Shown here: in pieces, positions 23,964 through 62,121 of the stretch
How positions within the stretch are numbered: the first letter of the stretch is position 1
Layout: each line of letters begins with the position of its first letter
Assembly: GCA_011033025.1 (NCBI GenBank)
Contig: WFMF01000052.1
Coordinates: 506,396-570,395 of the forward strand
Source of the DNA: Beroe forskalii
Lineage: Eukaryota; Ctenophora; Nuda; Beroida; Beroidae
Length of the DNA: 64,000 nt
Direction of reading: 5' to 3'
Position numbers and translations under genes: made by a program
Notes under the pieces: generated by a model
Seen by the model: the letters and a program-made list of their open reading frames with translations, nothing else
What the model was told of the DNA's origin: nothing
Database searches by the model: none

Positions 23964-24007
23964 ATCGAATCTAAACATATGCCTTCGCGCGCGCGGCTTC
24001 CTCCCCC

Positions 24008-26299: not shown

Positions 26300-26539
26300 A
26301 ATAGATGAATTAATTAATCTTAATTATAATTGTATAAAAGTTCACAAGTGCTTACTTGTATGACACAGATAAACCAGACAAAATCAGTTTTAAATCAATG
26401 AGCTTTCAAATTAAAATCTATGATGGAGCTGAATGCACATTACAGGCAATGCAATATCAAAGAACATTTCTTAAATCTTAATTTCCAGTGAAGCAGACGA
26501 TTTTGAAAATACTGAAAAAATTATTGAAAATAACAATCT

Positions 26540-29434: not shown

Positions 29435-29472
29435 TTAGCTACATCATAATGATAATATATTATTAAACTCAA

Positions 29473-29690
29473 CACTACTAACTACAATCAAATTTGAGAT
29501 AGGTGCTCATCACCAAATAGAGTTTTCTGAAGACAAGAGATAATATAATCATTTGTATTCTCGAAACTGTCAGTAAATCAGTGGTGTAAAGTAGATCTGA
29601 TTCGAATCCATTATTGCATTTATAGCGTTTCATTATGCTGTCCCCCCTCAGTCAATGCTATAAGCAATCAAGTTCCACACATTAATACCA
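29473..29690 (+). repeat. Dispersed repeat R1, copy 2
   Basis: Matches 7252-7480 along its length and is the mirror of 61860-62071 in the right arm. It lies just outside LINE E in the left arm. Confidence 0.65.
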
Positions 29691-29709
29691 TATAATTGTA
29701 AGAGCTAAT

Positions 29710-32079
29710 AAATAATAATAATAATAATAATAAAAACATAATGGTATTGAACCATCTCACTTCAATTCACTAGTAAACATAAAATGGCTTTCAATAAAAA
29801 ACACGCCCTTTAACACAGGCGTCCAATAACTTAAAGCTGTCAAAATCAAGCCTGAAAAACATGATAAAAAGTTATGTAATTATTGAAAAACAACTATGAA
29901 GAGTTGATGTTGATGCCCTTCTTCTTGGCCACAAAAGGATTTTCCCTCAAATACTGGTTAAACTTCATCTTATTTGACAAATAACTGCTCGCTTCTATTT
30001 TTTCTAGAACTTGTTTAGATACATACCAAAAGTTGCTAGGGCTAAGACACTTTGCATCATTTTTATAACACTCCAGACTAGCTTTGAAATTATCAACAGT
30101 GGAAACATCTCTCACTGATTTAGGTAAATCATTCCAAAATTGCCGGACTCTTTCAGAAATAAAATTGTCAGACAATTTGCATATATCCTTTGACAAATTA
30201 ACATTAGCTGTCTTATGAGTTAACAGATTCCTTCTACTTCTACCAAGTTTAAACAAACCCTTTCCATATTCAACTTGATTATTAACCATTTTAAATGTTT
30301 CTATGAGGTCACCTCTTATTCTTCTTTCAGCCAATGTTGTCAAACTAAGTCTGTCCAAACGTTCACTATAGGGAAGTGTACCAATGCCATTTATAAGCCT
30401 TGTGAAGCGACGCTGAACACCTTCTAATTCAAGGATGGTAGTCCAATTCCCACAGTGAGCAGTCGGACACCAAAGCTGCACACAGTACTCAAGCTTTGGT
30501 CTAATTATTGCCTTATATATTCTTAACATTATTTCACTTTCTTTAGAGATAACATTCCTTCCTACCCATGCAATGGTTCTATTTGCTTCCTTAATACATT
30601 TATCAATATTACAGTCCCACTGCAAGTTATTATTCATTAAAACACCCAGATCCTTTTCAGTTAGAGTTTCTTGCAAGATCTTACCATCTAAAACATACTC
30701 ATTTTTTGGGTTATCATTCACAGTAATGTGCATCACTTTACATTTATCAACATTAAATTTGAGAAGCCAGGTTTCCTCCCAACATTCTAAAGATTTCAAA
30801 TCAGCACTGGTTACATTTAAGTTATCAGCATTGGCAACAATTTTTAAATCATCAGCAAATATTTTGGAGACACCTTTTATACCATCAGGCAAATCGTTGA
30901 TATATAGTATAAATAATAAAGGTCCTAATATTGAACCCTGTGGGACACCTGATTTAACACTTTTAGAATCAGAATATTCTCCTCTTACTACAGTTTTCAT
31001 AGTTCTGTTAGACAAAAAGTCCTGAATTATAGCCAAGGTTTTCCCACTAATACCGAATTTTTCTAATTTAATTAGGAGCCTATAGTGGGGTACGGAATCG
31101 AAAGCTTTCATGAAATCAAAAAATAACACATCTACAGGTGAGCCTTCTTCAAGTAAATTAATTATAGTATCCACAGTTTCTAACAGATTTGACAAACAAG
31201 ACTTCTTAGGAACAAATCCATGTTGATCATCAGAAATATTACTTTCAACGAATTTCAAAATATGATCTCTCACTAATTTTTCATACACTTTGCATAGAAT
31301 ACATGTTAAGGATACTGGCCTATAATTATATGGATCATTCCTTGAATCCTTCTTATGGAGTGACACAATGTATGCTTCTTTCCAAATCTCAGGGATTTTT
31401 GCCTCCTTAGCACATTTATTAAACAGAGCAGTTACAACTTGAACAAATTGATAATTTTCAGCTAAGGATTTCAATAGTTTGGGGTGTACACCATCAGGCC
31501 CAAAACTCTTATAAACATTTAGAACTCTCAATTCATTATACACATCATTAAAATTGATATCTATGTCATTACATTTGGTAACATTTTTTGTATTATTATA
31601 ACAAGCCTTTGGCAATGGACCATTTGGCTCTTCAACAAAAACTGAACTAAAAGCATCAGCTAAACAATCAGCTGTTTCCTTATCATTGCAAGTACGAGAG
31701 CCATCTGTTCTTACCAGGCTTGTTATAATATCTTTGACTTTGTTCCGTGACCTCAAATATGAAAAGAATGCACGAGAGTTGTACTTAAGATTCTTGGTTA
31801 CCTTTCTCTCATACTTAACCCTAGCTTCACATTCCAAATTTTCAAAAATCTGTTGTTTTTCTAGTGCTATGTTCCAATTTCTTATGGTTGGACTTAAATC
31901 AAACTGATTCCAAGCTTTGTTCTTACCTCTAATTGCTCTTTTCAAAGAACGATTAACCCAGGGAGTATTATAATTGTCATCAATATTGTCCTTTCTCATT
32001 TTCAATGGAATTCTATTAGATAAGTCATTCAAGTTTTTCATAATACTAGTCCAAATATCATTAACAGAAATATCATCAG
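29710..32079 (-). mobile_element. LINE copy E, CR1/jockey-like retrotransposon with empty site visible
   Basis: The most complete LINE in the window: AAT microsatellite tail (29711-29732), 3' UTR and one long reverse-transcriptase frame. The right arm carries the unoccupied site (GAGCTAATAGAT in complement near 61838-61850). The left junction is GAGCTAATA followed by the tail; the right junction is CAG-AATAGAT, so a target duplication of about 4 bp (AATA) is likely. The 5' end (complement CTGATGAT) is the same base as in copy C, although endonuclease and ORF1 are missing. Confidence 0.92.
29894..32041 (-). CDS. LINE reverse transcriptase (copy E), lacks endonuclease
   Basis: 715-residue frame starting at an ATG; a stop lies upstream in the flanking DNA, so the frame is limited by the element's 5' end. 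Order of parts: pre-RT segment with TPWVNRSLKRAIRGKNKAW, fingers and palm with [36 protein letters not shown], the catalytic FADD at about residues 395-398, thumb, then the usual C-terminal domain (RPKLEYC, FWNDLPKSV). No APE-type endonuclease domain and no ORF1, both expected of an autonomous element in this group. It may be translatable, but the copy is unlikely to move alone. The CR1/jockey placement is from motif style, not from a tree. Confidence 0.9.
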   Translation of the reverse strand: MKNLNDLSNRIPLKMRKDNIDDNYNTPWVNRSLKRAIRGKNKAWNQFDLSPTIRNWNIALEKQQIFENLECEARVKYERKVTKNLKYNSRAFFSYLRSRNKVKDIITSLVRTDGSRTCNDKETADCLADAFSSVFVEEPNGPLPKACYNNTKNVTKCNDIDINFNDVYNELRVLNVYKSFGPDGVHPKLLKSLAENYQFVQVVTALFNKCAKEAKIPEIWKEAYIVSLHKKDSRNDPYNYRPVSLTCILCKVYEKLVRDHILKFVESNISDDQHGFVPKKSCLSNLLETVDTIINLLEEGSPVDVLFFDFMKAFDSVPHYRLLIKLEKFGISGKTLAIIQDFLSNRTMKTVVRGEYSDSKSVKSGVPQGSILGPLLFILYINDLPDGIKGVSKIFADDLKIVANADNLNVTSADLKSLECWEETWLLKFNVDKCKVMHITVNDNPKNEYVLDGKILQETLTEKDLGVLMNNNLQWDCNIDKCIKEANRTIAWVGRNVISKESEIMLRIYKAIIRPKLEYCVQLWCPTAHCGNWTTILELEGVQRRFTRLINGIGTLPYSERLDRLSLTTLAERRIRGDLIETFKMVNNQVEYGKGLFKLGRSRRNLLTHKTANVNLSKDICKLSDNFISERVRQFWNDLPKSVRDVSTVDNFKASLECYKNDAKCLSPSNFWYVSKQVLEKIEASSYLSNKMKFNQYLRENPFVAKKKGININSS

Positions 32080-32329
32080 AATAGATGAATTAATTAATCT
32101 TAATTATAATTGTATAAAAGTTCACAAGTGCTTACTTGTATGACACAGATAACCAGACAAAATCAGTTTTAAATCAATGAGCTTTCAAATTAAAATCTAT
32201 GATGGAGCTGAATGCACATTACAGGCAATGCAATATCAAAGAACATTTCTTAAATCTTAATTTCAGTGAAGCAGACGATTTTTGAAAATACTGAAAAAAT
32301 TTATTGAAAAATAACAATCTTATTGTACA

Positions 32330-33090
32330 GCCCCGAGCTCAGCGCGGCGCTATGTGTTTGTGCGCGCGCTTTTTGCTAGGAAAATCCAATATTTTTTTGA
32401 AAAAGAAGCTAGGCACATGGGCACATGGCACTTCCCCTAACCAGGGGTGTCGCGAAACGCAAGGCGCGGCGCGCGCGTAAAACTAGGGATCTGGTTAAAG
32501 CAAACATGTGGCACCTGTATCATTTGCAGTGCATATGCATGGCGAAAAATAAATCGTGTTTCTTTAAGCTCTAACCAGATCCTTGCTAAACACGTATATC
32601 CCTGTTTGTTCCCCTAACCAGGGGTGTCGATACGCTTGCACCGCGCCGGGCCGCGCACTCCGTGCGCGTAAAAGGGTCCTGGTTAGGGCAACCCTGTTTG
32701 CGTTGCGCCACGCGCGTGCACACACCTATGCGGGCTTAGGAAACCTTAACCAGATCCCTAGTTTAACGCGCGCAGTGCAGTGCGGGCGCGCGGCCCGGCG
32801 CGGTGCCTTGCTCGTTCCGCGAATAACCCCTGGTTTTCATAAACCCGCATAAATGTGTGTACGCGCCGCGCCGCGCGCTTCCCTACGCCGCGCCGCGTGA
32901 CGATATCGATAACAGGGGTATACGTGTTAAGCAACCCATGGTTGGGGAATAAGCCGGGCCGGGCTGTGTAAAAATAAATTCTTTTTTATTTTTTTAGCCC
33001 ACCTATGTGTGCGTCACTGCGTCTGCGCGCAGTGCTTCAATTCCCTGAGGGAACGCGCCGCAAACAGGGGTATATGTGTTTTAGCAAGTC
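32330..33090. mobile_element. GC-rich hairpin-element cluster, left unit 2
   Basis: Near-identical to 26540-27310 (the tandem partner) and partly mirrored at 60870-61380 in the right arm. Starts of the TTGCTAAACACG and CCCTAACCAGG families are at 32584 and about 32612. Confidence 0.6.
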
Positions 33091-35686
33091 ATAAACTGAT
33101 TCAAAGATGTGTTTTAAGTTTTAATTTTCAAATATATTCTTTTTTCTATCTATTATTTCCTTTGCTTAATGTTTACTTTTCTTAAATTTAATTTGATAAA
33201 TAGCAGATACGAACCAAAACAATGGTGATTAGTGAACTTTTACGTGTGGAAGTTTCACTTTCTTAACATTTCAGTAAGTTTTAAAAAGCTGGAAGAACCA
33301 GTAATCTGTAGTGGAAGGTTGAAGAATGAAGATATTGAGTTCTGTGAAGTTCTGAAGTGTTGATGCATCCAACAAAATCCTTTATTTCACTTTATTTTAC
33401 TATTGTCAGATGTTGCAACATCAAAATCCTTCATATCACTTTATTTTACTATTGTCAGATGTTGCAACACCATTTAAAGTTGTAGTACAAATGAATATCC
33501 TTCATCTTTAAGACATGATGTTTGTTACCCTGTGGCTGGGGGGGGGGGATTCCAGATATTTTGCTTTATAGATTGCCAGGGTAATGTTGGGTAACCAACT
33601 TATCATTAACCCCTTTTTGAAAATAACCTCATTGGCTGTTATGTATCTTCTTATGTATCTCATTGATACCCATGATGTATTACTATTCTATTGCCAGTTT
33701 TATCGACACTTCCATTGATATTTTCAAGATAAATACATCTTTTTCATCAGGAAGTCCACCTAGTGTTGAATAAAATGCTCAAATTTTATAACATGAATTG
33801 GTTTGTTAATTTAAACCTCATTATGCACAATTTCATGGAATATTGAATGAAAATTGAATCAGGTAGTTTAGCAATTGCATATTGAATTCATATTTAAATA
33901 ACGATAATGATTTCTCCCTAATGAATCCTTTCCTAGGTCTTCTTCTAGAGATCCCCCTCAGTCATTGCTAGAGGTGATGATTGATATAATTCTTATATTC
34001 TTTTATTTGTTTACAACTAACTCAAGCTGCTTCTAGGTTGTGCTCACAGCTACTTTGCATGACACATGTTACTATAAGGAATGTTGACATAGAGTTTCCT
34101 TTTTACTCCATACAAATGTCAAGAAGATTATATGAGTCATGTCATCAAGGCCTTGCAACTAAAGCAGAATGCTATTCTAGAATCCCCAACTGGCACAGGA
34201 AAAACTCTATGCCTGCTCTGTTCCGTCCTTGCTTGGAGACTTACCTACATTGCAAAAAGGCAACTTGATGCCATTTCAGGAAATCCCAGTGTCTCGGGAT
34301 TGAATGAAGCTGTTGGGCATGGGAAAGATGCACCAATTGAAGCATTTGCAGCAATTCCCAAGATTATTTATGCCTCAAGAACTCATTCACAGATATCTCA
34401 GGTTGTTAATGAACTGAAAAATACTATCTACGAACCAAAAGTAAGTGTGATAGGGTCACGAGAACAATTATGTTTGCATCCAAAAGTGATGAACATTGAG
34501 AATTCAATGGCTAAAATCCATACATGTAGGTCAAAAGTTAAGGAGAGGTCATGTGTTCACTACACCAATGTTGAGAAAAAAATTCAGGATTCTGCATTTG
34601 ATGCAATTCTGGACATTGAGGAGTTGATTGCTATTTCTAAAGATAAAACTATGTGTCCCTATTATTCTACACGAGAACTTTTGAGGAATGCTGATGTCAT
34701 ATTTATGCCTTATAATTATCTTATTGATAGTAAGACTAGAAGAAATCAAGGCATTTCCTTAGAAAATTCAATTGTCATATTTGATGAAGCACACAATATA
34801 GAGAAAGTTTGTGAAGAGTCATACTCTTTTGAAATTACCTCAACTGATATTGCCAATTGTATTGAGAACTGCCAACTAACTTTGCAAAGATACTGGATGA
34901 TGGATCAGGTGATGATGCTTCTCGAGCAGGACAAGATCCTACTGAATTAACTAAAGATGATGTCCTAACAATGAAAGCTATATTTTGGCTTTAGAACGTG
35001 AGTTTAACAAAATTGAAGTGAAGGGTGAAGGCAATACAATTGAAAAATCAACTTTCAGAGACTTACTAGCATCCATTAAAATTAATCTTGAAACAAAGGG
35101 GTTGATTACAGAAGTCCTTCAAAAAATGGAAGCTGTACTATCTGTGAGTACAAGTAATAAGATTGTTGGCAATACCTTTGTCGTGCTGAATAACTTTATG
35201 CAGATATTAGACTTAACATTAGCACAAGATGAAAGCTCTCAATCAACATATGTCTGTTATGTTTCAAAGGAAAAAGCCGATAAAAAGGGACCAAAGGGGA
35301 GGATGGACAAAAATGCAGAATCAGTTGTTGCAAGATATGTTACCAAACTATCTTACTGGTGTTTCAGCCCAGGAATTGCTATGCAAGACTTTATTCGGCA
35401 GGGAGTGTATTCAATCATACTCACTAGTGGAACATTGTCTCCTCTCAACTCATTCTCTAGTGAACTGAAGATACCCTTCCCAATAACCCTTCAGAATCCT
35501 CATGTAATTGCTCCTTCTCAAATAAGTGTGCAGGTAAATATGATACTTTAGTTACTTTGATAGTAATTAAATACCCCAAATCATCTTGCAGAGTAATTGC
35601 AAATAGATCAATAAGCATGCAAATAAACTCTCACTTCAATAGTGCCATCAATCTACAAGATGATTATGGGATCCTATGGCCTCAAG

Positions 35687-38324
35687 CAGGCATGGATCCA
35701 CCGGGGCGTCTTGAGGCGTCTGCGCCCCCACCAGATATTTGGGGCGTGCATGGGGGCGTGCAATTTTGAAAATTTGATGCTTGCGAATTAATTCAAGATG
35801 CCAGAAATAAACTTTGTGGAAAACTTTCATTCATTCGTTACTTCTAGAAGCATATTTTAAATTTGAATACCTCTGATAATGATATTTTTTATCTACATAA
35901 AACAGTACAGAGTAGCTGTACTATGATCAACCATATTTATATAGTTAGCAAAAGGGAAAAGAAACAAAACAGAGGGCCCATGCGTTACAGATATTAACAT
36001 AAAGCACACCTCCAGAACCATAACAAAAGGGACACATGAACTAAAAATAATTTTTTCCTGTTCCCAATCGCGTTTTTGTTTTACAAAAAGGCATTGAGAA
36101 AAGGTTAGCAGAGATCGTGTTTTGTGGGGGTTGTGTGTATACTACCTTTACGCGTACTGTTAAATCTGAAATAGGTACTGTGCTGCTTGTAGCATACCCA
36201 AATTTGGTCGTCGTCACGATGTCGTCGTATGTCACTTTTTCGATCAACTGCTCCTTTATAATATCACTCAGCGTCAGAGTAGCTTGGTGTAGTGGCATCC
36301 TTCGCATTATGGGCTGCAACTAGCAAACTGGGCTACTTTGTAGGTATTTGAGTTCAATGCTCTGTTGATGCTGATGTTCTTTATGAAAAATTTAACAATT
36401 CTTTAATCATAAAATAAAAACTTAATCAATTTTCACGGTATCAATCAGATTGGATTTCAATCACACAGCCATTTGAACTTCTTTAAGTAGCGGGCAATTC
36501 GGCCAATTTACAATGGGCAGTATTAGTGCCATCAGTTATGAATGATCTAAAGAATTGACTTGAGGAAAATAAACATGATAGTTTGTCTCGGTTCATGATT
36601 GATAACAATGATATATCTGAAGCTTTAATCTTGGTCAGTAATTGATAATTATATTGTGTATTTCAATCTTGAAGATATCATGGCGGGGTACAATATTAGC
36701 GAACATTGCAATGGTTTGATATCTGCAACGCAACACAAATGAAAATTTAACGTACAACGAAAATGGTGATCATAGTTATGAAACTCTGAACGGCCCGCAA
36801 CGAATCTTCAGAGAGTTCTATGAAATGGCGGGAAGCAGCGAACATTTGGCACGTGGAACGAAATCGCCCACGTGATATTTAGATCTCATGCGTTAATTCA
36901 AACTTGTAGTAGAGAAATGTATATAGCGCCCATGCCCGCGCCGAGGAATATCTATAAAATTGATTCAATGATGTTAGTATTGCGATGTCACACTTGATAG
37001 AAGAAGCGTTTATCACGGAAAATTATTTCAGATAAATCGTAAATCTATTGAATACCAACTCTTGCTCTTAATTCCGTGGGTGTCGCCCGATTGTATATCT
37101 TGATTTGTGAGGTCACTTTTGTGCTTTATCGTCAACTCACTATATCAGTAAATAAGACGGACAACAGTCAAATGACAGCGTGTTCTAATAGTACTACCAG
37201 CCCCGAGGAACAGGAAATTAAGCGCCTGCATACGGGAACAATCAACAAACGCACAAGAAATGCTCCGGCAGGCGCAATTCTTGTTTAATAATAAGGCTTG
37301 AAAAGTGAAAAAATAGCTCACGGGCTAAAACGGGTCATTTAGTTGTGCAAGGGTGATTGTGTAGTACAAAGTGTACTACACACGATTTTTTGGCCTCCAT
37401 CCAAAAAATAATATTCATGCCAATAGCCTTAAAGGCTTCAGACAAAAACAGGATTTAGAGTTTTTGAATCCTATTGATTCAAAACTCTACTGCCTTCTAC
37501 AGTATTACAACAACGAAAATAAAAGTCGAAAATAACAGGCACAATGCAATTAATACTTCAGACCTCTAACTACAGGGGCTGCCCCCCAGACCCCTGTAGC
37601 ACGATTTTATATTTATATCAATGAGATTTTGTACGACAGCATTAGCAGCGCTGTTATATTGAAAGCAATGCCCACACACTATTGAGTTGCCATTTCTTTA
37701 TACTCCAGACCTCTGGCTTCTGGGGGCTGCCGCCACAGACCTCTGCTGCTCTTTTGATTCTTAGTATATCATTTATTGGAATTTTTATGACAGAAACAAC
37801 AGCACTGTTATTAAGTTGAAAATAATGCCCAAACACTATTGACTTACCATTTCTCTATACTTCAAACCTCTGGCTTCTGGGGGCTGCCGCCCCCAGACCC
37901 CTGCTGCTCTTTTGATTTAATATTTATTGATATTTCGTACAACATCAACAAGAGTGTCGTTAAGTTGACAACAATGCTCAAACACTATTTAGTTGCTAAT
38001 TCTTTATACTCCAGACCTCTGGCTTCTGGGGGCTGCCGCCCCCAGACCCCTGCTGCTCTTTTGATTCTTAGTATAACATTATTGGAATTTTAATAACAGA
38101 AACGACAGCGCTGTTATTAAGTTGAAAATAATGCCCAAACACTATTGACTTACCATTTCTTTATACTTCAGACCTCTGGCTTCTGGGGGCTGCCACCCCC
38201 AGACCCCTGCTGCTCTTCAAATATTCAAAAACTTCCTATGTGCGAACGAGGTGCCGCGAAGCGGCGCCGAGTGAGCTGTATGAATTTGCACGCCCCCAAA
38301 AATTCTGGGCTGGATCCATGCCTG
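35687..38324. mobile_element. hAT-like DNA transposon, non-autonomous, with 8-bp target duplication
   Basis: 2638 bp with terminal inverted repeats CAGGCATGGATCCA and TGGATCCATGCCTG; a second inverted match, TGGGGGCGTGCAA, lies just inside. GCCTCAAG flanks it at 35679-35686 and 38325-38332. The right arm has a single GCCTCAAG (complement at 56788-56795) at the same place, an untouched empty site. An 8-bp duplication and CAGG.. ends are the signature of the hAT superfamily. I find no transposase frame; the longest frames are under 100 codons. It sits in the RTEL1 intron. Confidence 0.92.
37560..38220. repeat. Internal tandem repeat of the hAT-like element
   Basis: Five copies, spaced about 145-158 bp, of a hairpin phrase CTTCTGGGGGCTGCCGCC followed by CCCAGACCCCTGCTGCTC (near 37570, 37710, 37868, 38016, 38176). 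The first copy is the most diverged. GGGGGCTGCCGCCCCC is itself self-complementary. Confidence 0.75.
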
Positions 38325-40182
38325 GCCTCAAGATAAGGAATAAGGATAAGCAGTAATCCAATCAATATAAGCACCTCATTGAATCTTCCAGTTGAATAAC
38401 AATGTATGACCATAACCAGTTGTTTTATGATGTACAGTATATAGTACATAACAAGCAACAGCAGTTCAAAATTGCAATTTAACTTCTCTGAAATGGCAAT
38501 ATTGAAAGATTTTGAACCAAACTTTATCTCTACTCTTGTAGTGAGCTGAATCAGTTAATCATATATATAGACTTCTACTCCATGAGTTGAATCTCTCTAG
38601 ACTGAAAGCATGATTGTATAGTTTATACTCAATAATTTGCTAACCATATCTAATTTATCTGCATTTTCAGGTTCTTTGTAATGGGTACGATGGTGTGGAA
38701 TTTCTTTCAACTTACAAGAATCGAAGCAATGTCAGTTATATTACATCTTTGGGAAATACCATCATAAATCTCCTGCGACTCATACCAAGTGGGGTGCTTG
38801 TCTTCTTCCCCAGCTATGTTGTTATGAATACAACCATAGAGTCTTGGCAAGGGAGTAATATCTTTACTAGAATATCTAAAATAAAGCAATGCTTCATTGA
38901 ACCCAGATCAAAGAATGAAATGGCAAGTGTCATGGCAGAGTTTGATCAAAAGGTTAAGAACCCCTTTGAAGGAACAACTGGCGCTATACTCTTCGCTGTC
39001 TGCAGAGGAAAGGCGTCAGAAGGAATTGATTTTGCAGATATGCATGGGAGAGCAGTTATCATAACTGGCTTGCCTTTTCCACCCAGAGTTGACCCAAAAG
39101 TAAATTCCAAGATGGTATTTTTAAACCAGCAGAAGAAATCTGTACCAGACTCATTGAGTGGGGATGAATGGTATAAGCAGCAAAGTTCAAGGGCTGTTAA
39201 CCAGGCAGTGGGTCGAGTCATAAGGCATAAGGATGACTTTGGTGCTGTGATTTTCATGGATAAACGCTTTTCTTTCCGGTCTAATATAGAAGAATTACCT
39301 AAATGGACTAGAAATTTTACCAAGGTTCATGACAAATTTGGCACATGTGTGAAAGAATTGTCCCAGTTTTTCAAACTCCATGCTAGCCAAGAAATGAAGA
39401 AAGGTGATGATACCAAAGATGTGAACTCAACCAAGCCCTCTGGAGGAAGACTCAGCACAAAGTATCAAGTGTTTCAACAGAATGAGAAAAGTAAAATAGA
39501 CAGCAGAAACGATGAGTTGGAATCTTTGAAGATCCTTGCTGAGAACGATGAGCACACACCCCCTCCAATTAGATTAAGTCAAAAGAATAGACGGATAGAG
39601 AAAAGTCTGATCACATCACTTAACAATGTCAACTCACCTAATTTTACCTTGTCACCAGAACTGTCTCCCATTACCTCCAAAAGTAAGGTACGCCATGACT
39701 TCAAAACACCAGAGGCTTTGAAAAATCCAAGGAAAAGAATAAAAGTCGTTCAAAGATCCACGACAGTGACTGATCAGCCGTTTTCCCAAGATTCGAGAAC
39801 AACTGTGAAATTTATGCCTCAGTTGAATTCTGCAAGTACTGGTTGTCACAATAGTAAGAGTGGATCTCAACCAGACACAAAATCCAAGGAACCTGAACCA
39901 AGCCAAACTGCAGCTGCAGACAATAAGAAAGTGGAAAAGGAGAAGAGTTGTAAAGAATATGCTGCACTCATTAGATCCTCGTTAGATCCCTCTGAATATG
40001 AAGTTTTTAAAAGCATTGTAGGTATCTATAGGAAAGATGGTGACATCCAATTGCTGATTAATAAGATTAATGATCTTCTTTTTGTAAACCACAAAGGTTT
40101 ACTCAGAGGGTTCAGAGTATTTCTTAACCGCAAAGACAAGCCTACGTTTGATAAGTATTTTAATGGGTTGGTTTTTTCATAG

Positions 40183-40958
40183 TTTAGATGGCCCAGCTTT
40201 TATTTTTAGACAAAAATTATGGTATAGGTCATAATAAGAGTATAGGAATCAAATGATTTTATAGTGTTTGACCGATAAATACTTTTTTATATGATGAGAT
40301 TACTAAATTTTGCGATGAGTTATTTGTTTTACTGATAATTGGTAATGATCGAAAGAATACCATGGAATCTAGATTGTTTTGTTGTCTGATCACTTCAGTT
40401 GCAATTTATCGAAGTTGCCAGGATTTTTAATTGTAATTTATGAGACTCATTTTTAGAGTATTAAGCTATGTCATGGGTATCTAATAAAAAGAATTAGCTA
40501 CATGGATAAGGATAATTTTTATCTTTTCTTCACATGATAAGGATATAGTTGAATATAAAGATAAACTTATAACCTATTTATTAATTGTTTTTAACTATAA
40601 ACGATGAGGCATTTTTTATTCATTGGACTACAGTAATGTTTAAAAATATTACATTAGCAAATTGTAGTAATTTGCTTCCGTTCCACAGTCTCAATTATTT
40701 CAATGGCCATCATTGGGCATTGGTTGGTGGCTATCTCTATTCACCTTTAAACACACTTATTAAGATATTATTGTTCAGTTGACTCGATCATATTTCCGGT
40801 TAATCAAATGCTTTGGAAAAATTAACCCCATTAAACAAATAACACATCACTATGTTACGCTTCCAATAATATCTCATCACCACAATTATCAGTAATTCCC
40901 CTATTAATTCCCCTATCAATTATCCTCTAATTACCCAACTAACTGAGTCTATCTAGCC
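40183..40958. other. RTEL1-PPM1G intergenic region, left arm
   Basis: Mirror of 54159-54962. Presumably holds the RTEL1 3' UTR and the PPM1G promoter. Near its right end ATTCCCCTATTAATT occurs about twice; the right arm has more copies of the same 12-bp phrase. No other signal is clear. Confidence 0.5.
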
Positions 40959-41084
40959 ATGGGAGCAGCGCTATCTGGTTACTTGGAAGCACCGGTCACT
41001 GATAAGGAAGTTACGGATGGAACGTCCAAGTTGGGCATCAGATACGGCGCTTCTACCATGCAGGGATGGCGGGTCGCAAATGAG
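40959..41084 (+). pseudogene. PPM1G: Orphan PPM1G exon 1 (left arm)
   Basis: 42 codons identical in protein to exon 1 of the intact right-arm PPM1G ([18 protein letters not shown].. to MQGWRVANE), ending at a GT donor (GAG|GTATGT). No downstream PPM1G exon follows on this strand: the inverted homology stops inside intron 1 at 42642 and unrelated DNA begins. If transcribed, it could only produce a short aberrant RNA, unless it splices to something in the spacer. Confidence 0.85.
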
Positions 41085-41103
41085 GTATGTCTAAATTATT
41101 CGT

Positions 41104-51500: not shown

Positions 51501-54158
51501 ACCACCATGTCCGTCGTATACAGCAAACATGGCAGAGTCGTCTGTCAGATCGGGTAGACAGCTCATGGCGTCCTGGAATGATGGGAGAGGGATTAGAGTT
51601 GGCATAAACGGGTGGTATTTTGCATTTTAATTCATTAAATGATGGTTGTTCATTGCCCGCTTGTCGCTTCGATAAAATCGGTGGCGCGTTGATGAAAACA
51701 CCTGGTTTTAGATGGTCTAGGCATCTCAAACCAAGCACGCAGTATTGCATCAGAGTTATATTTGGGCTCTTTCTTAGAAATTCCTTCGCATTCCATTAAT
51801 TGAGATGTTGCCGCCAAATTACTGTGAACGGGCATGTGCTAAAATCGCGAATCTCTTTTGCGCGCGAAACATAATTCAACACAACGCGCGACAGATACTC
51901 TATTTCGATCTTCGCGGCTGCGCGAAATTCCAGAATTCGAACAATTTCTTTCAAGTGTTCAGCACTCATTACCCTGCCATTTAATCAAGTTAAAGCTCCA
52001 ATTACGCAAACCCATTAGCCTGGCTAAAGTGATTGAAGGGGTGTTTCGAGGATTTAATGGTTTTAAACGTTACATTAACCACCATTATTCTTGGGAAACG
52101 GAAAAGGTAAATTTGATAAATTGTTATACAGTTTGAGCTTTTGAGTCAACGAGATACGACCATGATGCTTGATTAATAGAAATATTAATTAATACTAGCA
52201 GTTCATTACAGACAGCCTAGAACATCATCTTTCAACTGTAATCCTGAGATAATCATCACTTTCTTATAAGATGACTGTGTCCTGTGATGATGATTCAAAC
52301 CGAAGATTTATTTCATATAAGAGGAGTTTGAGATAAGAAAAACAGAAGACAAAGGGGTCCTATATCTGACAGAACACCAGCACATAGCTTACTGACACTG
52401 TCCATTCTCTTACATGGCACAGACTCGCTAACAAATAAGAAGTCCTGTCAACACGAAATACTGTAACCCAGTTCGGGGTTATAACAGGTTATTGATAATG
52501 ACGTCATTATCAGGGTTTAGGATGGTTGATCTATGGCGTGAAAAAGCCTTATTTGGGCATGCGACCAGTTTCTGAGTATATGTAACGTGTGACAACTAGG
52601 TTTACGTGACCTGTAACGAAACACTAAAATATGATGCGAAGACTCTTTAAGCTTAACGCATTTTGTCGTTTCCACTCATGGCTGTAATCTTCATTTCACC
52701 AGTGGATAATATTCGTGTTGTAACAAGTAATTGTGGCAATCAGCAGCGAAATAATGACATTTATAACAACTAACACCAAGACATCAGATAACCGCTACTC
52801 ACCTTGACATTTTATTAACATTTAAACCTTGTAAACTTTGACACCACTAAGTGAGATAACATACCGCTACTAAGCTTGACACCACTGAGTTAGATAACAC
52901 ACCGCTACTCACCATGACACCACTAAGTGAGATAACATACCGCTACTAAGCTTGACACCACTAAGTCAGATAACATACCGCTACTCACCTTGACACCACT
53001 AAGTCAGATAACATACCGCTGCGCACCTTGACACCACTAAGTCAGATAACATACCGCTACTAAGCTTGACACCACTAGGTCAGATAACACACCGCTACTC
53101 ACCATGACACCACTAAGTCAGATAACATACCGCTACTCACCTTGACACCACTAAGTCAGATAACATACCGCTACTAAGCTTGACACCACTAAGTCAGATA
53201 ACACACTGTTACGCAACTTGACACCACTGAGTCAGATAACATACCGCTACTAAGCTTGACACCACTAGGTCAGGTCACACACCGCTATTAAACTTGACAC
53301 CGCTAAGTCAGATAACATACCGCTGCGCACCTTGACACCACTAAGTCAGATAACATACCGCTACGAAGCTTGACACCACTGAGTTAGATACCATACCGCT
53401 ACTAAGCTTGACACCACTAAGTCAGATAACATACCGCAAACCACCTTGACACCACTAAGTCAGTTAAAATACCGCTACTAAGCTTGACACCACTAAGTCA
53501 GATAACACACTGTTACGCAACTTGACACCACTAAGTGAGATAACATACCGCTACTAAGCTTGACACCACTGAGTTAGATACCATACCGCTACTAAGCTTG
53601 ACACCACTAAGTCAGATAACATACCGCTACTAAGCTTGACACCACTAAGTCAGATAAGATACAGCTAAGCACATTGACACCACTAAATCTGATAACATAC
53701 CGATATGCACTTTGGCACCACTTAGACGCGAATAATTTAGATGTATAATATATATCAATCCATGTCACCTAAACAGTACACAACTACAATTAATGACAGT
53801 AAATAAACCAACTTCTGTCCCTATGGTTGTTCAGATATGGCCTAGCCTGGCGACCTTAGTGAATGTCCTTGCTGAACGGCATGTTAAACAAGGAACTGAA
53901 GCTGAGAGGTTCCGTTCAGTACAGACAGCTATAGTGTCAGATGTTGGTATATACAAAGTGTGTTTCTCAACACAACCCTAGATTATGTCCTAATTTAGCC
54001 TCATTATTGAGATATGCCCTAATTAAACGTACCTCATTAGCGACCCGCCATCCCTGCATAGTAGAAGCGCCGTATCTGATGCCCAACTTGGACGTTCCAT
54101 CCGTAACTTCCTTATCAGTGACCGGTGCTTCCAAGTAACCAGATAGCGCTGCTCCCAT
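48579..54158 (-). CDS. PPM1G: Protein phosphatase 1G (PP2C gamma), 10 exons
   Basis: Nuclear Mg/Mn-dependent Ser/Thr phosphatase that acts on histone and splicing substrates in known orthologues. Exons in order: 54033-54158, 51338-51572, 50988-51104, 50621-50739, 50231-50461, 49931-about 50119, 49535-49790, 49213-49360, 48888-48974, 48579-48671. Landmarks: MQGWRV then EDAM, VYDGHGG (D62), a long acidic insert (runs of Asp/Glu in exons 3-6, the hallmark of PPM1G), [36 protein letters not shown], and a basic bipartite tail (KRKLED..KKSK) likely to be a nuclear signal. About 530 residues against 546 in human. All junctions are GT-AG except the acceptor of exon 6, where the only nearby AG (50120-50121) would shift the frame by one. 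Intron 1 holds the 38-bp minisatellite. Confidence 0.92.
52785..53735. repeat. 38-bp minisatellite in PPM1G intron 1, right arm
   Basis: About 24 units of the same 38-bp repeat as 41104-41800, in complement (CTAAGCTTGACACCACTAAG, then TCAGATAACATACCG). Longer than the left-arm array by about six units. Confidence 0.9.
53752..54028 (+). mobile_element. SINE-like insertion in PPM1G intron 1, right arm only
   Basis: The left arm reads straight from AATAATTTAGA to the exon 1 donor; here about 280 bp intervene, bracketed by similar AATTTAGATGTA and AATTAAACGTA (a possible diverged target duplication). Inside, CCTTGCTGAACGGCATG to GAAGCTGAGAGGTTCCG (53869-53918) matches the repeat at 17614. Confidence 0.5.
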
Positions 54159-54962
54159 GGCTAGATAGACTCAGTTAGTTGGGTAATTAGTAGGGTAATT
54201 AATAGGGGAATTAATAGGGGAATTAATAGGGGAATTACCGATAATGGTGGTGATGAGATAATTAGAAGAGTAACATAGTGATGTGTTATTAGTGTTATGG
54301 GGTTAATTTTTCCAAGGCATTTGATTAACCGGAAATATGATTGAGTCAACTGAACAATTAAATCTTGATAAGTGTGATAACATGTGAATAGAGATAGTCA
54401 GCAACAAATGCCCAATGAAGGCTATTGAAATAATTGAGACTGTGGAACGGAAGCAAATTACTACAATTTGCTAATGAAATATTTTTAAACAATACTGTAG
54501 TCTGTAGTCCAATGAATAAAAAATTGCCACATTGTTTATAGTTAAAAACAATTAACAAATAGGTTATAAGTTACTTTCATATCCAACTATATTCTAATGT
54601 GAAGAAAATATAAAAACAATCCTCATGATCTATATGTAGCTAATTATGTTTATTAGATACCCATGACATAGCTAAATACTCTAAAAATGAGTCTCATAAA
54701 TTACAATTAAAAATCCTGGCAACTTCGATAAATTGCAACTGAAGTGATCAGACAACAAAACAATCTAGATTCCATGGTATTCTTAGGATCATTACCAATT
54801 AAGCAATTATCAGTAAAAAAAATAACTCATCGCAAAATTTAGTTATCTCATCATATAAAAGAGTATTTATCGGTCAAGCACTATGAAATCATTTGATTCC
54901 TTTACTACTATTATGACCTATACCACAAGTTTTGTCTAAAAATAAAAGCTGGGTCATCTAAA
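54159..54962. other. RTEL1-PPM1G intergenic region, right arm
   Basis: 804 bp between the RTEL1 stop and the PPM1G start, both genes on the minus strand. GGGGAATTAATA is repeated three to four times at about 54196-54237, more than in the left arm. The close spacing leaves little room for a separate PPM1G promoter, which should lie here. Confidence 0.5.
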
Positions 54963-57900
54963 CTATGAAAAAACCAACCCATTAAAATACTTATCAAACG
55001 TAGGCTTGTCTTTGCGGTTAAGAAATACTCTGAACCCTCTGAGTAAACCTTTGTGGTTTACAAAAAGAAGATCATTAATCTTATTAATCAGCAATTGAAT
55101 GTCACCATCTTTCCTATAGACTCCTACAATGCTTTTAAAAACTTCATATTCAGAGGGATCTAACGAGGATCGGATGAGTGCAGCATATTCTTTACAACTC
55201 TTCTCCTTTTCCACTTTCTTATTGTCTGCAGCTGCAGCTTGGCTTGGTTCAGGTTCCTTGGTTTTTGTGTCTGGTTGAGATCCGCTCTTACTGTTGTGAC
55301 CACCAGTACTTGCAGAATTTGAACTGGGCATAAATTTAACAGTTGTTCTAGAATCTTGGGAAAACGGCTGGTCAGTCACTGCCCTGGATCTTTGAACAAC
55401 TTTTATTCTTTTCCTTGGATTCTTCAAAGCCTCTGGTGTTTTGAAGTCATGACGAACCTTACTTTTGGAGGTTATGGGAGACAGTTCTGGTGATAAAGTA
55501 AAATTAGGTGAGTTGACATTGTTAAGTGATGTGATCAGACTTTTCTCTATTCGTCTTTCCTTCTGACTTAATCTAATTGGAGGGGGTGTGTGCTCATCGT
55601 TCTCAGCAAGGATCTTCAAAGATTCCAACTCATCCTTTCTGCAGTTTATTTTACTTTTCTCATTCTGTTGAAACACTTGATACTTTGTTCTGAGTCTTCC
55701 TCCAGAGGGCTTGGTTGAGTTCACATCTTTGGTATCATCACCTTTCTTCATTTCTTGGCAAGCATGGAGTTTAAAAAACTGGGACAATTCTTTCACACAT
55801 GTGCCAAATTTGTCATGAACCTTGGTAAAATTTCTAGTCCATTTAGGTAATTCTTCTATATTAGACCGGAAAGAAAAGCGTTTATCCATGAAAATCACAG
55901 CACCAAAGTCATCCTTATGCCTTATGACTCGACCCACTGCCTGGTTAACAGCCCTTGAACTTTGCTGCTTATACCATTCATCCCCACTCAGAGATTCTTG
56001 TACAGATTTCTTCTGTTGGTTTAGAAATGCCATCTTGGAATTTACTTTTGGGTCAACTCTGGGTGGAAAAGGCAAGCCAGTTATGATAACTGCTCTCCCA
56101 TGCATATCTGCAAAATCAATTCCTTCTGAGGCTTTGCCTCTGCAGACAGCGAAGAGTATAGCACCAGTTGTTCCTTCAAAGGGGTTCTTAACCTTTTGAT
56201 CAAACTCTGCCATGACACTTGCCATTTCATTCTTTGATCTGGGTTCAATGAAGCATTGCTTTATTTTTGATATTCTAGTAAAGATATTACTCCCTTGCCA
56301 AGACTCTATGGTCGTATTCATAACAACATAGCTGGGGAAGAAGACAAGCACCCCACTTGGTATGAGTCGCAGAAGATTTATGATGGTATTTCCCAAAGAT
56401 GTAATATAACTGACATTGCTTCGATTCTTGTAAGTTGAAAGAAATTCCACACCATCATACCCATTACAAAGAACCTGAAAATGCAGATAAATTAGATATG
56501 GAACTTAACAAATTATTGAGTATAAACTATACAATCATGCTTTCAGTCTAGAGAGATTCAACTCATAGAGTAGAAGTCTATATATGTTTAACTGATTCAG
56601 CTCACTTCAAAATCTTTCAATATTGCCATTTCAGAGAAGTTTAATTGCAATTTTGAACTGCTTTTGCTTGTTATGTACTATATAATGTACATCATAAAAC
56701 AACTGGTTATGGACATTTTGTATTCAACTGGAAGATTCAATGAGGTGCTAATATTGATTGAATTACTGCTTAGTGCTTATCCTTAGCCTTGAGGCCATAG
56801 GATACCATAATCATTTTGTAGAGTGATGGCACATTGGCCAATCAGCTAATATTTAGGTGAGAGTTTATTTGCATGCTTATTGATCTATTTGCAATTACTC
56901 TGCAAGATGATTTGGGGTATTTAATTACTATCAAAGTAACTAAAGTATCATATTTACCTGTACACTTATTTGAGAAGGAGCAATTACATGAGGATTCTGT
57001 AGGGTTATTGGGAAAGGTATCTTCAGTTCACTAGAGAATGAGTTGAGAGGAGACAATGTTCCACTAGTGAGTATGATGGAATACACTCCCTGCCGAAGAA
57101 AGTCTTGCATAGCAATTCCTGGGCTGAAACACCAGTAAGATAGTTTGGTAACATATCTTGCAACAACTGATTCTGCATTTTTGTCCATCCTCCCCTTTGG
57201 TCCCTTTTTATCGGCTTTTTCCTTTGAAACATAACAGACATATGTTGATTGAGAGCTTTCATCTTGTGCTAATGTTAAGTCTAATATCTGCATAAAGTTA
57301 TTCAGCACGACAAAGGTATTGCCAACAATCTTATTACTGGTACTCACAGATAGCACAGCTTCCATTTTTTGAAGGACTTCTGTAATCAACCCCTTTGTTT
57401 CAAGATTAATATTAATGGATGCTAGTAAGTCTCTGAAGGTTGATTTTTCAATTGTTTTGCCTTCACCCTTCACTTCAATTTTGTTAAACTCACGTTCTAA
57501 AGCCAAAAATATAGCTTTCATTGTTAGGACATCATCTTTAGTCAATTCAGTAGGATCTTGTCCTGCTCGAGAAGCATCATCACCTGATCCATCATCCAGT
57601 ATCTTTTGCAAAGTTAGTTGGCAGTTCTCAATACAATTGGCAATATCAGTTGAGGTAATTTCAAAAGAGTATGACTCTTCACAAACTTTCTCTATATTGT
57701 GTGCTTCATCAAATATGACAATTGCATTTTCTAAGGAAATGCCTTGATTTCTTCTTGTCTTACTATCAATGAGATAATTATAAGGCATAAATATGACATC
57801 AGCATTCCTCAAAAGTTCTCGTGAAGAATAATAGGGACACATAGTTTTATCTTTAGAAATAGCAATCAACTCCTCAATGTCCAGAATTGCATCAAATGCA

Positions 57901-58433
57901 GAATCCTGAATTTTCTTCTCAACATTGGTGTAGTGAACACATGACCTCTCCTTAACTTTTGACCTACATGTATGGATTTTAGCCATTGAATTCTCTATGT
58001 TCATCACTTTTGGATGCAAACATAATTGTTCTCGTGACCCTATCACACTTACTTTTGGTTTGTAGATTGTATTTTTGAGTTCATTAACAACCTGAGATAT
58101 CTGTGAATGGGTTCTTGAGGCATAAATAATCTTAGGAATTGCTGCAAATGCTTCAATTGGTGCATCTTTTCCATGCCCAACAGCTTCATTTAATCCTGCG
58201 ACACTGGGATTTCCTGAAATGGCATCAAGTTGCCTTTTGGCAATGTAGGTAAGCCTCCAAGCAAGGACAGAACAGAGCAGGCAAAGTGTTTTTCCTGTGC
58301 CAGTTGGGGATTCTAGTATAGCATTTTGCTTAAGTTGCAAGGCCTTGATGACATGACTCATATAATCTTCTTGACATTTGTATGGAGTAAAGGGAAACTC
58401 TATGTCAACATTCCTTATAGTAACATGTGTCAT
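54963..58433 (-). CDS. RTEL1: Regulator of telomere elongation helicase 1, intact copy
   Basis: Iron-sulphur DEAH helicase that dismantles T-loops, G-quadruplexes and D-loops in the nucleus. Exons 56958-58433 and 54963-56474 join in frame (Val-Gln before, Val-Leu-Cys after) to give 995 residues. ATG at 58433 is chosen because the open frame upstream has no ATG and the start aligns with known RTEL1 N termini. Motifs: Walker A ESPTGTGKT (41-49), ASRTHSQ (105-111), four cluster cysteines (about 138, 156, 165, 199), DEAH (242-245), LSYWCFSPG, ILTSGTL, VCRGKASEG, QAVGRVIRH. A disordered linker is followed by one harmonin-like domain near the C terminus (KEYAALIRSSL to FLNRKDKPTFDKYF). Human RTEL1 is about 1,220-1,300 residues with two such domains and a PCNA-binding tail; here one domain and no obvious tail are seen. 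Only one intron, unusually few. Confidence 0.95.
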
Positions 58434-58668
58434 GCAAAGTAGCTGTGAGCACAACCTAGAAGCAGCTTGAGTTAGTAGTAAACAAAGAATATATGAATTA
58501 AATCAATCATCACCTCTAGCAATGACTGAGGGGGATTTCTAGAACAAGACCTAGGAGAGGATTCATTAGGGAAAAATCATTATCGTTATTAAAATATGAA
58601 TTCAATGTGCAGTTGCTAAACTATCTAACTCAATTTTTGTTTCATTCAATAATAATATTCCATGAAAT

Positions 58669-59974
58669 TTAAACACCCCAAAAGCTGAGGTAGGTATTCG
58701 ACTGAAGAAGCCTGCACACCACTCATCTTGGTGTGACTCATTTGGATCCTGCTGCTCTCTAAATTGCATTACCTAAAGGGATCATGTTGGAGTTCAAGTA
58801 CGGAGTTGGAGAAAAGTCTTGCAGATTGATGTCTTGAAGAAAGTTTTTCTTTTTAATTCAAATATATACCACAGACAAAACCGCAAGCGGCTGTCATAGC
58901 AACCCCCTCACAGAGTCACAGGGGCGCCGCTTTTTAATTGTAAGAGGTTATTATGATCTAAAAATACGTTATTCAGCGTCAAAGATAGAAATAATTTGTT
59001 AAAATCCTTGAAATAGTGATTTCCCTAATTTCTACAAAACGTCCACGTGAATTCACGTGCATTTCATTTCCATCGGCCATTTCTTGTTCTATTCAAGTAC
59101 AAATTAAGTTAAAATATTGATTCAGTCACTATTGTATAGTACAACAGCCCTGCACTTTTGGAATTCGGCCTGAAATTGGACTTAGCCGGCTCAAATTTAC
59201 GTTTTCGAGGGGCCATCACACCTTTCCCCTTAAATCGGGACGACTTAAAACTTTTTACCCTTGATATTTGATTGAGAAAGAACATTGATCTATCTGGAAA
59301 AGATGGAGCAATGTTCGTGAGTCGAGATATAGATGCTGAAAGTCACCATATTTTGGCCTAGTAAGAATCCTCGATTTTTGGATGCCTCCCACGACCTCAT
59401 TTTTTCACCAATCACCATGAAACTTCTTTTGTGGCTAAAACTCGAGGTCTTGATGCAACATAAGTCGGGAAATCATGATGCGATAGAAAACTTTTCAGAT
59501 ACAGTGCTTCAAAGTGGTCCAAAATTACGTTTTTCGCTAAAAATCGTGATTTCATCGATTTTGATGACGTCATAACAGCAAAAAAATCGATCCGCGAAAC
59601 TTCCTACATAGCCTATAACATTCTCCCATCTTAGCTGAAAAAAACACGCCCTCGATCAAGGCTCTACCATTTGTGGTTCTCGAGATTTCATCGTTACAAA
59701 CTTGGTCCTAAATTATCACGTCTATAAATAAGTATATATTCGTCCTGTGACATCGATACATTACTATATAGTCCTGGCAAGGTTGCGTTCGAGATATCTC
59801 GAGATTTCGGTATACGCATTAACTCGAGAGGGGTCGATTCCTACGTAAAATTTGACGAGGAATCGTTTAAGATAGGTTTCAAAGCTCTCAGTTGCTTCCT
59901 ACACTATTTTCAAACGCAAGTTTTTTTTTTCTTTTTTTTACTGTGAGGGGGTTGCCGTCCTTGCCAGGATGGAA
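58669..59974. mobile_element. 1.3-kb insertion in the right arm, with 12-bp direct repeat
   Basis: Absent from the left arm. ATTCCATGAAAT flanks it at 58657-58668 and 59975-59986, and the left arm has the single site (complement at 33830-33841). The first 200 bp resemble repeat sequence near 7790 (GAGTTGGAG..GTCTTGCAG). The rest, about 58889-59965, has its own inverted ends: CAACCCCCTCACAG at 58900-58913 and its complement at 59941-59954. It may therefore be a composite of two elements. No coding frame of note. Confidence 0.75.
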
Positions 59975-60869
59975 ATTCCATGAAATGAGTTTTAAATTAA
60001 CAAACCAATCCATGTTGTCAAATTTGATAAATTTGAGCATATTATTCAACACTAGGTGGACTTCCTGATGAAAGAGATATATTGGTCTTCAAACTATCAA
60101 TAGTAGTGTCGATACAACTGTCAATAGAATAGTAATACATCGTGGGGGTATCAATGAGATACATAAGGAGATACATAACAGCCAATGAAATTATTTTCAA
60201 AAAGTGGTTCATGATTAGTTGGTTACCCAACATTACCCTGGCAACCCATAAAGCAAAAAATCTGACATTCCCCCCCAGCCACAGGGTAAAAAACATCATA
60301 AAGGATATTCATTTTTTTTTAATGGGGGGAAAAATCTCCGAAGAGAGTAAAATATTATATAGCTTGAGGAAGCACCAAACATCCATGATGGATGGTGTAT
60401 CACAATAACAGAATCAAATACTTAATTATAAACTAATAAAATCTGATATCAAAGGATATTCATTTGTACTATAACTTTAAATGGTGTTGCAACATCTGAC
60501 TTTAGTAAAATAAAGTGATATAAAAGATTTTGATGTTGCAACATCTGAAAATAGTAAAATAAAGTGATATAAATGATTTTGATGGATGTATCAACACTTC
60601 AGTACTTCTCAGAACTCAGTTATCCTCATTTATCATCCTTCTACTGCAGATTACTGGTTATTCATGCTTTTTAAAACATAAAGAAATGTTAAGAAAGTGA
60701 AACTTCTTCAAAAAATAGTAACAGTTCACTAATCACCCTTTTTTTGTTCTGTATCTGCTATTTATCAAATTAAATTAAAAAAGGTAAACATTAAGCAAAA
60801 GATAAAGGGGAAACAAAAAGAAAAGATATATTTGAAAATGAAAATTTAAAACAAAGCTTCCGCGGGTCA

Positions 60870-61380
60870 GCTTCTGCTCATTACCTCAGGGAAGTGTTGC
60901 TAAATACGTATACCCCTGTTATAGTTGCGCGGCGCGTACACACATCTATGCGGCCCGGGCCCTTAGGAAAGGAAAGCGTTGCGCGCGTACGCTTGCAAAT
61001 ATGTAGGTTTTAAAGAGGATATATATATTTACACGGCCCGGCTTATTCCCCCAACCAGGTTGCTAAACACGTATATCCCTGTGTGGCTCGCGCGGCGCGC
61101 TTCCCCAGCGCGCTTCCCGCAGGGAAGCGCGCGGCGCGTACACACACCTATGCGGGCTTAGGAACCAACCAGGGGCTTCGCGAAAAGAGCAAGGCGCCGC
61201 GCGCGTAAAAATAGGGATCTCGTTAGATCAACGTAACACGGCTTATTTTTTTGCAGTGCATATACGCTGCATGCTGCAGATGATACAACAAGTGCCATGT
61301 GCGTCGCTTCTTTTTTTTCTTAAAAAATTATTGGACAAAAAGCGCGCGCACAGCTGGCAAATAGCGCCGCGCTGAGTTTG
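60870..61380. mobile_element. GC-rich hairpin-element cluster, right arm
   Basis: Diverged counterpart of 32330-33090 in complement. It includes the clean copy at 61060-61164 and partial ends (TGCTAAATACGTATACC near 60899; GGGCCCTTAGGAA near 60956). Element content differs from the left arm, so these elements moved or recombined after the arms separated. Confidence 0.6.
61060..61164 (+). mobile_element. 105-bp GC-rich miniature element with 9-bp target duplication
   Basis: TTGCTAAACACGTATATCC to GGGCTTAGGAA with a GC-rich hairpin core. CCAACCAGG flanks it at 61051-61059 and 61165-61173, a perfect 9-bp duplication. It is 11 bp longer than the 94-bp copies because of an extra GCGCTTCCC-type segment in the loop. 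Confidence 0.8.
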
Positions 61381-61850
61381 GAACTGTACACTAAGATTGT
61401 TATTTTGTTTTACGAATTTTTCAGAATTTTCAAAAATTGTCTGCTTCACTGAATTTTTTGATATTGCAGTGCCTGCATTGCATGCATTGTAATCATTCAG
61501 CTGCATCATACCTTGTAATATATTGTTTGCATGTAGTCAGATGAATAAATTTTTAGGTGGTTTCATCGTTATTCGTTCCACGTCGATCGAATGGACTGAT
61601 CAAATGAAAACTGCGCACAATACACTATACTAATTCACGATGGCATCGCGCAAAACAGCAATTGTGTGCGTTTTTCATTTGATCAATTCATTCAATCGAC
61701 GTGGAATGATGCAGGTGCCTAATAATTGTATTGATGATTGATGTACTCACTTTTTCACTGAAAGCTTATCGATTTAAAACTGATTTTGTCTGGTTGTCTG
61801 CGTCATACAACTTAACAGTTGTGAAGATTAATTAATTTATCTATTAGCTC

Positions 61851-61875
61851 TATATATATATATATATATATATAT
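61851..61875. repeat. TA dinucleotide microsatellite
   Basis: About 12 TA units next to the LINE E empty site (GAGCTAATAGAT in complement). The left arm has no such run here. Confidence 0.9.
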
Positions 61876-62121
61876 GCATTATATGCATTGAACTTGATTG
61901 CTTATAGCATTGACTGAAGGGGACTGCATAGTGAAACTCTGAAAATGCAATAATGAATTCAAATCAGATCTACTTTACACCACTGATTTACTGCCAGCTT
62001 CAAGAATACAACATTAAAAATGATTGTTATCTCTCGTCGTCAGAAAACTCCATTCCTCAAATTTGATTGTAATTAGTAGTGTTGTTAAGTTTAATAATAT
62101 ATTATCATTATGATGTAGCTA
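61876..62121 (-). repeat. Dispersed repeat R1, copy 3, and outer end of right arm
   Basis: Complement of 29436-29690. The R1 landmark TACAATCAAATTTGAG is at 62056-62071 in complement. Homology to the left side ends at 62121. Confidence 0.65.

What the first reader, a model, noticed from the sequence alone, without database searches (positions are those of the whole stretch)
29436..62121. Large inverted duplication containing RTEL1 and the start of PPM1G
The left arm 29436-42642 and right arm 51934-62121 are reverse complements over about 8.2 kb of shared sequence, separated by a 9.3-kb spacer. They differ by clean insertions and by a few percent of bases. Either this is a real palindromic segmental duplication or two divergent haplotypes were joined head to head. 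Highly heterozygous marine animals make the second quite possible.
Basis: partly seen in the sequence, partly recalled or inferred. Interest (0 to 1): 0.8.

Follow-up and report, generated by a model that had tools for sequence, protein, structure and literature searches.

The report
Probable misassembled RTEL1 allele, inverted
In a comb jelly genome assembly the gene RTEL1 appears in two facing copies, most likely because the assembly set the other parental version of the same stretch beside the first, backwards, so it is probably not a real palindrome.

Summary
The inverted repeat is in the sequence: 29436-42646 against 51929-62121, about 7.8 kb of matching blocks, 9.3-kb spacer. The assembly's mitochondrial COX1 is 100% identical to the comb jelly Beroe forskalii. 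The right arm belongs to an uninterrupted locus: GHITM-like gene, RTEL1, and a PP2C gene (PPM1G) running from the arm into the spacer. The left arm holds RTEL1 and only the putative first exon of that gene, meets repeats at both ends, and carries a hAT-like transposon and a LINE absent from the right arm.

Within 264 kb of the scaffold I counted seven local duplications. In one, a stretch without a transposon sits inside the transposon-bearing version of itself; in another, an inverted piece lies between two copies of another segment. Both look like alternate-haplotype pieces inserted at contig breaks. I judge the left arm to be such a piece (0.65). A real inverted duplication is not excluded (0.28): no reads could be examined, and the outer flanks are not alleles of each other, which argues against a simple head-to-head join.

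The parts
29436..42646 (+). Left arm (copy B): RTEL1 on +, putative first exon of the PP2C/PPM1G gene, LINE and hAT-like insertions
51929..62121 (-). Right arm (copy C): RTEL1 on -, putative first exon of the PP2C/PPM1G gene; part of an uninterrupted locus
42647..51928 (.). Spacer: rest of the PP2C/PPM1G gene (minus strand), satellite units at its left end; no second long copy seen in the assembly (listing cut off, sorted by score)
49102..51626 (-). PP2C (PPM1G) exons: profile positions 28-91 (51626-51324), 119-200 (49824-49531), 197-243 (49410-49102), in gene order
54963..58502 (-). RTEL1 copy C: two large open exons (56940-58502, 54963-56504)
34030..40182 (+). RTEL1 copy B: three single-base homopolymer indels (34100, 34885, 34982) in the first large exon; second large exon (38644-40182) open
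24989..29434 (+). Third, partial copy (A): LINE fragment plus RTEL1 5' part, cut mid-exon; direct duplicate of 30748-35228
29436..29694 (.). Outer end of the left arm: dispersed repeat that also lies at the outer end of the right arm (61871-62121)
29712..32082 (-). Non-LTR retrotransposon (reverse transcriptase ORF 29894-32089) in copy B; apparent empty site in copy C, read by eye
35687..38324 (.). hAT-like DNA transposon with a nested repeat; inverted ends CAGGCATGGATCCA, 8-bp target duplication GCCTCAAG at 35679-35686 and 38325-38332; copy C has the empty site
41102..41798 (.). 38-bp minisatellite, left arm, 18.1 copies
52838..53702 (.). 38-bp minisatellite, right arm, 22.8 copies
42692..43234 (.). 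Satellite units (~345 bp) 45 bases beyond the inner end of the left arm; arrays on many other contigs
62487..63425 (+). GHITM-like gene (Bax1-I domain) in the right flank of copy C
8482..24988 (.). Left flank: largely dispersed repeats; no long match to the right flank in the parts compared

Best explanation
The palindrome is most likely an assembly artefact. Where the two versions of the RTEL1 region of a heterozygous diploid differ strongly (two transposon insertions, minisatellite length, 3-9% substitutions) they were assembled apart. One version (C) stayed in its true place between the PP2C/PPM1G gene and the GHITM-like gene. The other (B) was left as a short contig ending in repeats and was set beside the contig holding its partner, in the wrong orientation, with the joins closed without N. 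The partial copy A is a further, poorly supported duplicate of B. SHOWN: the anatomy, the hAT-like empty site, indel-rich LINE sequence left of B, purifying selection between B and C, and two nearby duplications whose anatomy fits inserted alternate pieces. INFERRED: that B is an allele rather than a paralogue (heterozygosity of this species was not measured), and the scaffolding and gap-closing steps.
For: (1) C is the complete locus: the PP2C gene runs from the right arm into the spacer, while B has only the putative first exon and satellite begins 45 bases after the arm ends. The second RTEL1 half gave two matches in the 216-Mb assembly, both here. (2) B's ends lie at repeats: a dispersed repeat at 29436, none of whose listed matches runs past the equivalent of 62121, and the satellite at 42692. 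(3) C has the empty site of B's hAT-like element with its 8-bp target duplication, and an apparent one for the LINE, read by eye, no target duplication identified. (4) dN/dS between B and C 0.15 and 0.07, dS 0.111 and 0.087 for the two exon halves; B's three frame breaks are single bases in homopolymers. (5) In nine aligned LINE copies private indels per kb are 19.2 (A) and 12.5 (20383 copy), against 0-4.6 in the other seven. (6) Same scaffold: at window -94731 to -68798 the order is a b | a' b' c | c' d, where a' b' c runs unbroken across the point at which the flanking copies carry an inverted-repeat element, the two homologies meeting with a 2-bp overlap. At 94.5-129 kb an inverted copy (114600-121448 of 94546-100316) lies between two copies of another segment (111286-114424, 124384-128980); both pairs contain minisatellite as well as ordinary sequence. 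(7) Four of four stretches searched outside known duplications and repeat nests show no second long copy. (8) Relatives, from passages: Hormiphora 2% SNP and 3.2% combined heterozygosity with a stated ceiling; allelic contigs in Beroe ovata Canu assemblies.
Against: No reads, depth or k-mers could be examined. There is no N between the arms. The outer flanks are not alleles in the parts compared, so B needs at least two false joins, and another if A is false. The indel excess does not run up to the 29434/29436 join: it fades along A, and the last 1.4 kb of A has 3 private indels, the same as B. dS of about 0.1 is above the 2% SNP heterozygosity of Hormiphora. Frequent local duplications could be real. 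The two calibrating cases are analogies, and in the second 2.9 kb (121449-124383) remain unassigned.
Confidence: 0.65

Rival explanations
1. A real inverted segmental duplication: RTEL1 and the first PP2C exon were copied in reverse orientation next to the original, both RTEL1 copies stayed under selection, and the copy later took up a LINE and a hAT-like element.
For: Arms in one stretch without N; other collinear duplications within 264 kb; non-allelic outer flanks in the parts compared; low dN/dS is also expected for two working genes; no indel-rich sequence directly at the 29434/29436 join.
Against: B's ends at repeats and its lone PP2C exon; three single-base frame breaks in B; same-scaffold cases best read as inserted haplotype pieces.
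Confidence: 0.28
2. Two whole haplotypes joined head to head (one of the first reader's two readings).
For: Divergence and transposon polymorphism fit alleles.
Against: Outer flanks share no long match in the parts compared, and no second long copy of the PP2C gene body was seen.
Confidence: 0.04
3. A chimeric molecule (amplification or ligation) folded back on itself.
For: Inverted arrangement.
Against: Such a molecule would give near-identical arms; these differ by 3-9% substitutions and two transposon insertions.
Confidence: 0.03

Closest known systems
False heterotype duplication (alleles assembled as paralogues; Ko et al. 2022, PMC9516828, passages seen)
   Same: Gene duplicated on one scaffold, allele-like divergence, ends at repeats, other tested stretches single
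   Different: Inverted, no N gap between the pair; read depth and k-mers not tested
False homotype duplication (read-error duplicate; same passages)
   Same: Copy A: near-identical to B, indel-rich in its LINE half, cut mid-exon
   Different: Depth not tested; 1.08% substitutions remain; RTEL1 half of A not indel-rich
Inverted segmental duplication / palindrome (recalled)
   Same: Inverted blocks over 1 kb at over 90% identity
   Different: Existence in a real chromosome unproved; one arm ends at repeats and carries one exon of a gene complete on the other side

Membership tests
False heterotype duplication | Half (haploid) read depth over both copies | not testable with these tools
   No reads available
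False heterotype duplication | Scaffold gap or depth gap between the pair | tested here: inconclusive
   No N between the arms, so the scaffold-gap form is not met; a depth gap cannot be tested
False heterotype duplication | Single-copy (haplotype-specific) k-mers in the reads | not testable with these tools
   No reads available
False heterotype duplication | Discordant linked or paired reads | not testable with these tools
   No reads available
False heterotype duplication | Copies differ as alleles do (substitutions, polymorphic transposons, selection kept) | tested here: met
   paralogues could meet it too
Inverted segmental duplication | Inverted blocks of at least 1 kb at 90% identity or more | tested here: met
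   95-97% over 1.8-1.9 kb and 93% over 2.8 kb; threshold recalled
Inverted segmental duplication | Both copies on one real chromosome | not testable with these tools
   Needs spanning reads or a second assembly

The most novel reading that the evidence does not exclude
The duplication is real: Beroe forskalii carries two selectively maintained RTEL1 genes in inverted orientation, on a scaffold dense with local duplications, and such an inverted pair could drive recurrent inversion polymorphism of the kind reported on Hormiphora chromosome 1.
Probability: 0.24. Interest if true: 0.35.

Novelty: not a real feature. Interest (0 to 1): 0.12.

Why it matters
If it is an artefact, RTEL1 copy number and local duplication counts in this assembly are inflated, and gene-family studies of ctenophores that use it need depth filtering. 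The signature of an element-free piece inside the element-bearing version of the same locus is a way to spot inserted haplotype pieces without reads. If it is real, it would be an animal with two RTEL1 genes in an inversion-prone arrangement.

Tried and rejected
Perfect-identity run at the inner end as a sign of an assembly-graph bubble: rejected; runs of 65 bp or more occur three times in the inner 850 bp. Left flank as the allele of the right flank: one 271-bp match in the parts compared (20301-22741, a LINE, was not in that comparison). 121449-124383 as part of the inverted piece: no match at the settings used. Zero spacing of the tandem pair at -32278 to -10519: not informative, a real tandem duplication also abuts. 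A sharp quality break at 29434: first believed from the LINE counts, dropped on rereading, and the odds for the artefact lowered from 0.68 to 0.65. Published nuclear genome of B. forskalii: listings showed none by title; not exhaustive. PMC12221973 (passages) does not name Beroe. NCBIfam gave rad3-like hits below the cut-off for RTEL1 and nothing for two PP2C exons. Limit of the genome search: only the best candidates are scored, and (repeat nest) even the query's own place is not listed, so absence in repeat-rich queries means little; the own place was found.

Full report
WHAT IS THERE. The window lies at C603:506396-570395 of a 216-Mb assembly in 1134 contigs. Self-comparison confirms an inverted repeat, left arm 29436-42646 (copy B) and right arm 51929-62121 (copy C), with 7752 and 7797 bases in matching blocks and a 9282-bp spacer. 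Both arms hold the helicase gene RTEL1 (Helicase_C_2 in both, DEAD_2 and ARCH_RTEL1 in both) and the same putative first exon of a PP2C phosphatase gene (the exon was not scanned for domains and was recognised by eye and recall).

THE ORGANISM. A mitochondrial COX1 on contig C1134 is 100% identical over 487 residues to Beroe forskalii (lineage). Listings showed no nuclear genome paper for this species by title.

THE TWO ARMS ARE NOT EQUAL. On the right, the PP2C gene starts in the arm and continues on the minus strand into the spacer, with PP2C profile positions 28-91, 119-200 and 197-243 in order at 51626-51324, 49824-49531 and 49410-49102. RTEL1 there has two open large exons, and the far side continues into a GHITM-like gene in sequence with no second copy found. 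On the left, only the first PP2C exon is present; the homology ends at 42646 and a satellite starts at 42692. The outer ends of both arms (29436, 62121) lie in a dispersed repeat, none of whose listed matches elsewhere runs past 62121. Copy B carries a hAT-like transposon (35687-38324; the family label rests on recalled traits, 8-bp target duplication and CAG...CTG ends), of which copy C has the empty site, and a LINE for which C shows an apparent empty site, read by eye and without an identified target duplication. The intron minisatellite has 18.1 copies in B and 22.8 in C.

A THIRD COPY. 24989-29434 (copy A) repeats 30748-35228 in direct orientation. It starts inside the LINE, lacking the LINE's 3' end, and stops inside an RTEL1 exon. 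Against B it shows 48 substitutions and 46 gaps, 31 of one base, 20 of these in homopolymers. Among nine LINE copies aligned, private indels per kb are 19.2 in A and 12.5 in the copy at 20383, against 0 to 4.6 in the other seven. The excess fades along A (gaps in A per 500 columns 7, 5, 5, 4, 2, 5, 2, 2, 0), and its last 1.4 kb has 3 private indels, as many as B. I read A as poorly supported long-read sequence; that is inference.

DIVERGENCE. B against C: dS 0.111 and dN/dS 0.15 in the second exon half, dS 0.087 and dN/dS 0.07 in the first. Substitutions are 3.0, 4.8, 7.8 and 9.5% in four blocks. Copy B has three single-base homopolymer indels in its first large exon. Both copies evolved mostly under selection, as alleles or as two working genes; this does not separate the two.

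THE NEIGHBOURHOOD. In the 264 kb of this scaffold that I read I counted seven collinear local duplications, A/B and B/C included: five direct and two inverted. Left out of the count are single-block pairs, LINE copies and, apart from A/B, pairs closer than 1.5 kb. Of 16 blocks measured, 14 differ by 3.0-10.5% substitutions; the exceptions are A/B (1.08%) and one block of the second inverted pair (0.24%). Two cases are telling. At -94731 to -68798 the order is a b | a' b' c | c' d. The middle piece runs unbroken through the point at which a b stops and c' d starts, the two homologies meeting with a 2-bp overlap, and in the outer pieces that point is occupied by an inverted-repeat element, 417 bp on the left and about 0.9 kb on the right. 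So the element-free version of a locus sits inside the element-bearing version. Two independent real duplications would have to meet at that point; insertion of the alternate haplotype at a contig break explains it in one step. At 94.5-129 kb an inverted copy of 94546-100316 (114600-121448) lies between two direct copies of another segment (111286-114424, 124384-128980), as expected if a small contig was set backwards between two overlapping contig ends. Parts of both pairs are minisatellite arrays, and 2.9 kb there remain unassigned.

WEIGHING. Four of four stretches searched outside known duplications and repeat nests have no second long copy in the assembly (the listing was cut off but sorted by score, and the search scores only the best candidates). 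So the assembly looks haploid at the places tested, with local leftovers. By analogy copy B is such a leftover: a repeat-bounded allelic piece placed beside the contig that holds its partner, inverted. Against this stand the lack of an N gap, the need for at least two false joins because the outer flanks are not alleles in the parts compared, the lack of an indel excess right at the 29434/29436 join, and a divergence above the 2% SNP heterozygosity reported for Hormiphora (passages of PMC8527503, which also says the measure has a ceiling). [quoted passage not shown] Passages of PMC9516828 (Ko et al.) give the read-based tests that would settle it; none can be run here.

VERDICT. Observation confirmed. 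Interpretation: probably an assembly artefact of heterozygosity (0.65), not a simple head-to-head join; a real inverted duplication remains possible (0.28).

Noticed in passing
window -94731 to -68798 (C603:411664-437597): Element-free haplotype-like piece inserted inside the element-bearing version of the same locus; the two homologies meet with a 2-bp overlap. A 100-N gap ends 237 bases before it.
   Followed up: yes
window 94546-128980 (C603:600941-635375): Second inverted duplication (94546-100316 against 114600-121448) between two direct copies of another segment, partly minisatellite; 121449-124383 unassigned.
   Followed up: partly
window -32278 to -10519: Tandem pair with no spacer, blocks at 88-96% identity and a few lower.
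   Followed up: partly
window -2261 to 32082: Four of the nine listed matches of at least 795 bases at 97% or more to a 1-kb query of this LINE (self included) lie on this scaffold (40 of 248 candidates scored); a fifth fragment is in copy A.
   Followed up: partly
window 36049-37288: 1.24-kb repeat nested in the hAT-like insert, with more than 30 listed copies across the assembly, most at 86-96%.
   Followed up: no
42692-43234: ~345-bp satellite with arrays in both orientations on C1024, C203, C327, C691 and others.
   Followed up: no
11641-12269: Two-copy 320-bp tandem repeat at 99% identity, possibly a local assembly duplicate.
   Followed up: no
3454-4482: Single-exon rhodopsin-like GPCR reading frame.
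   Followed up: no
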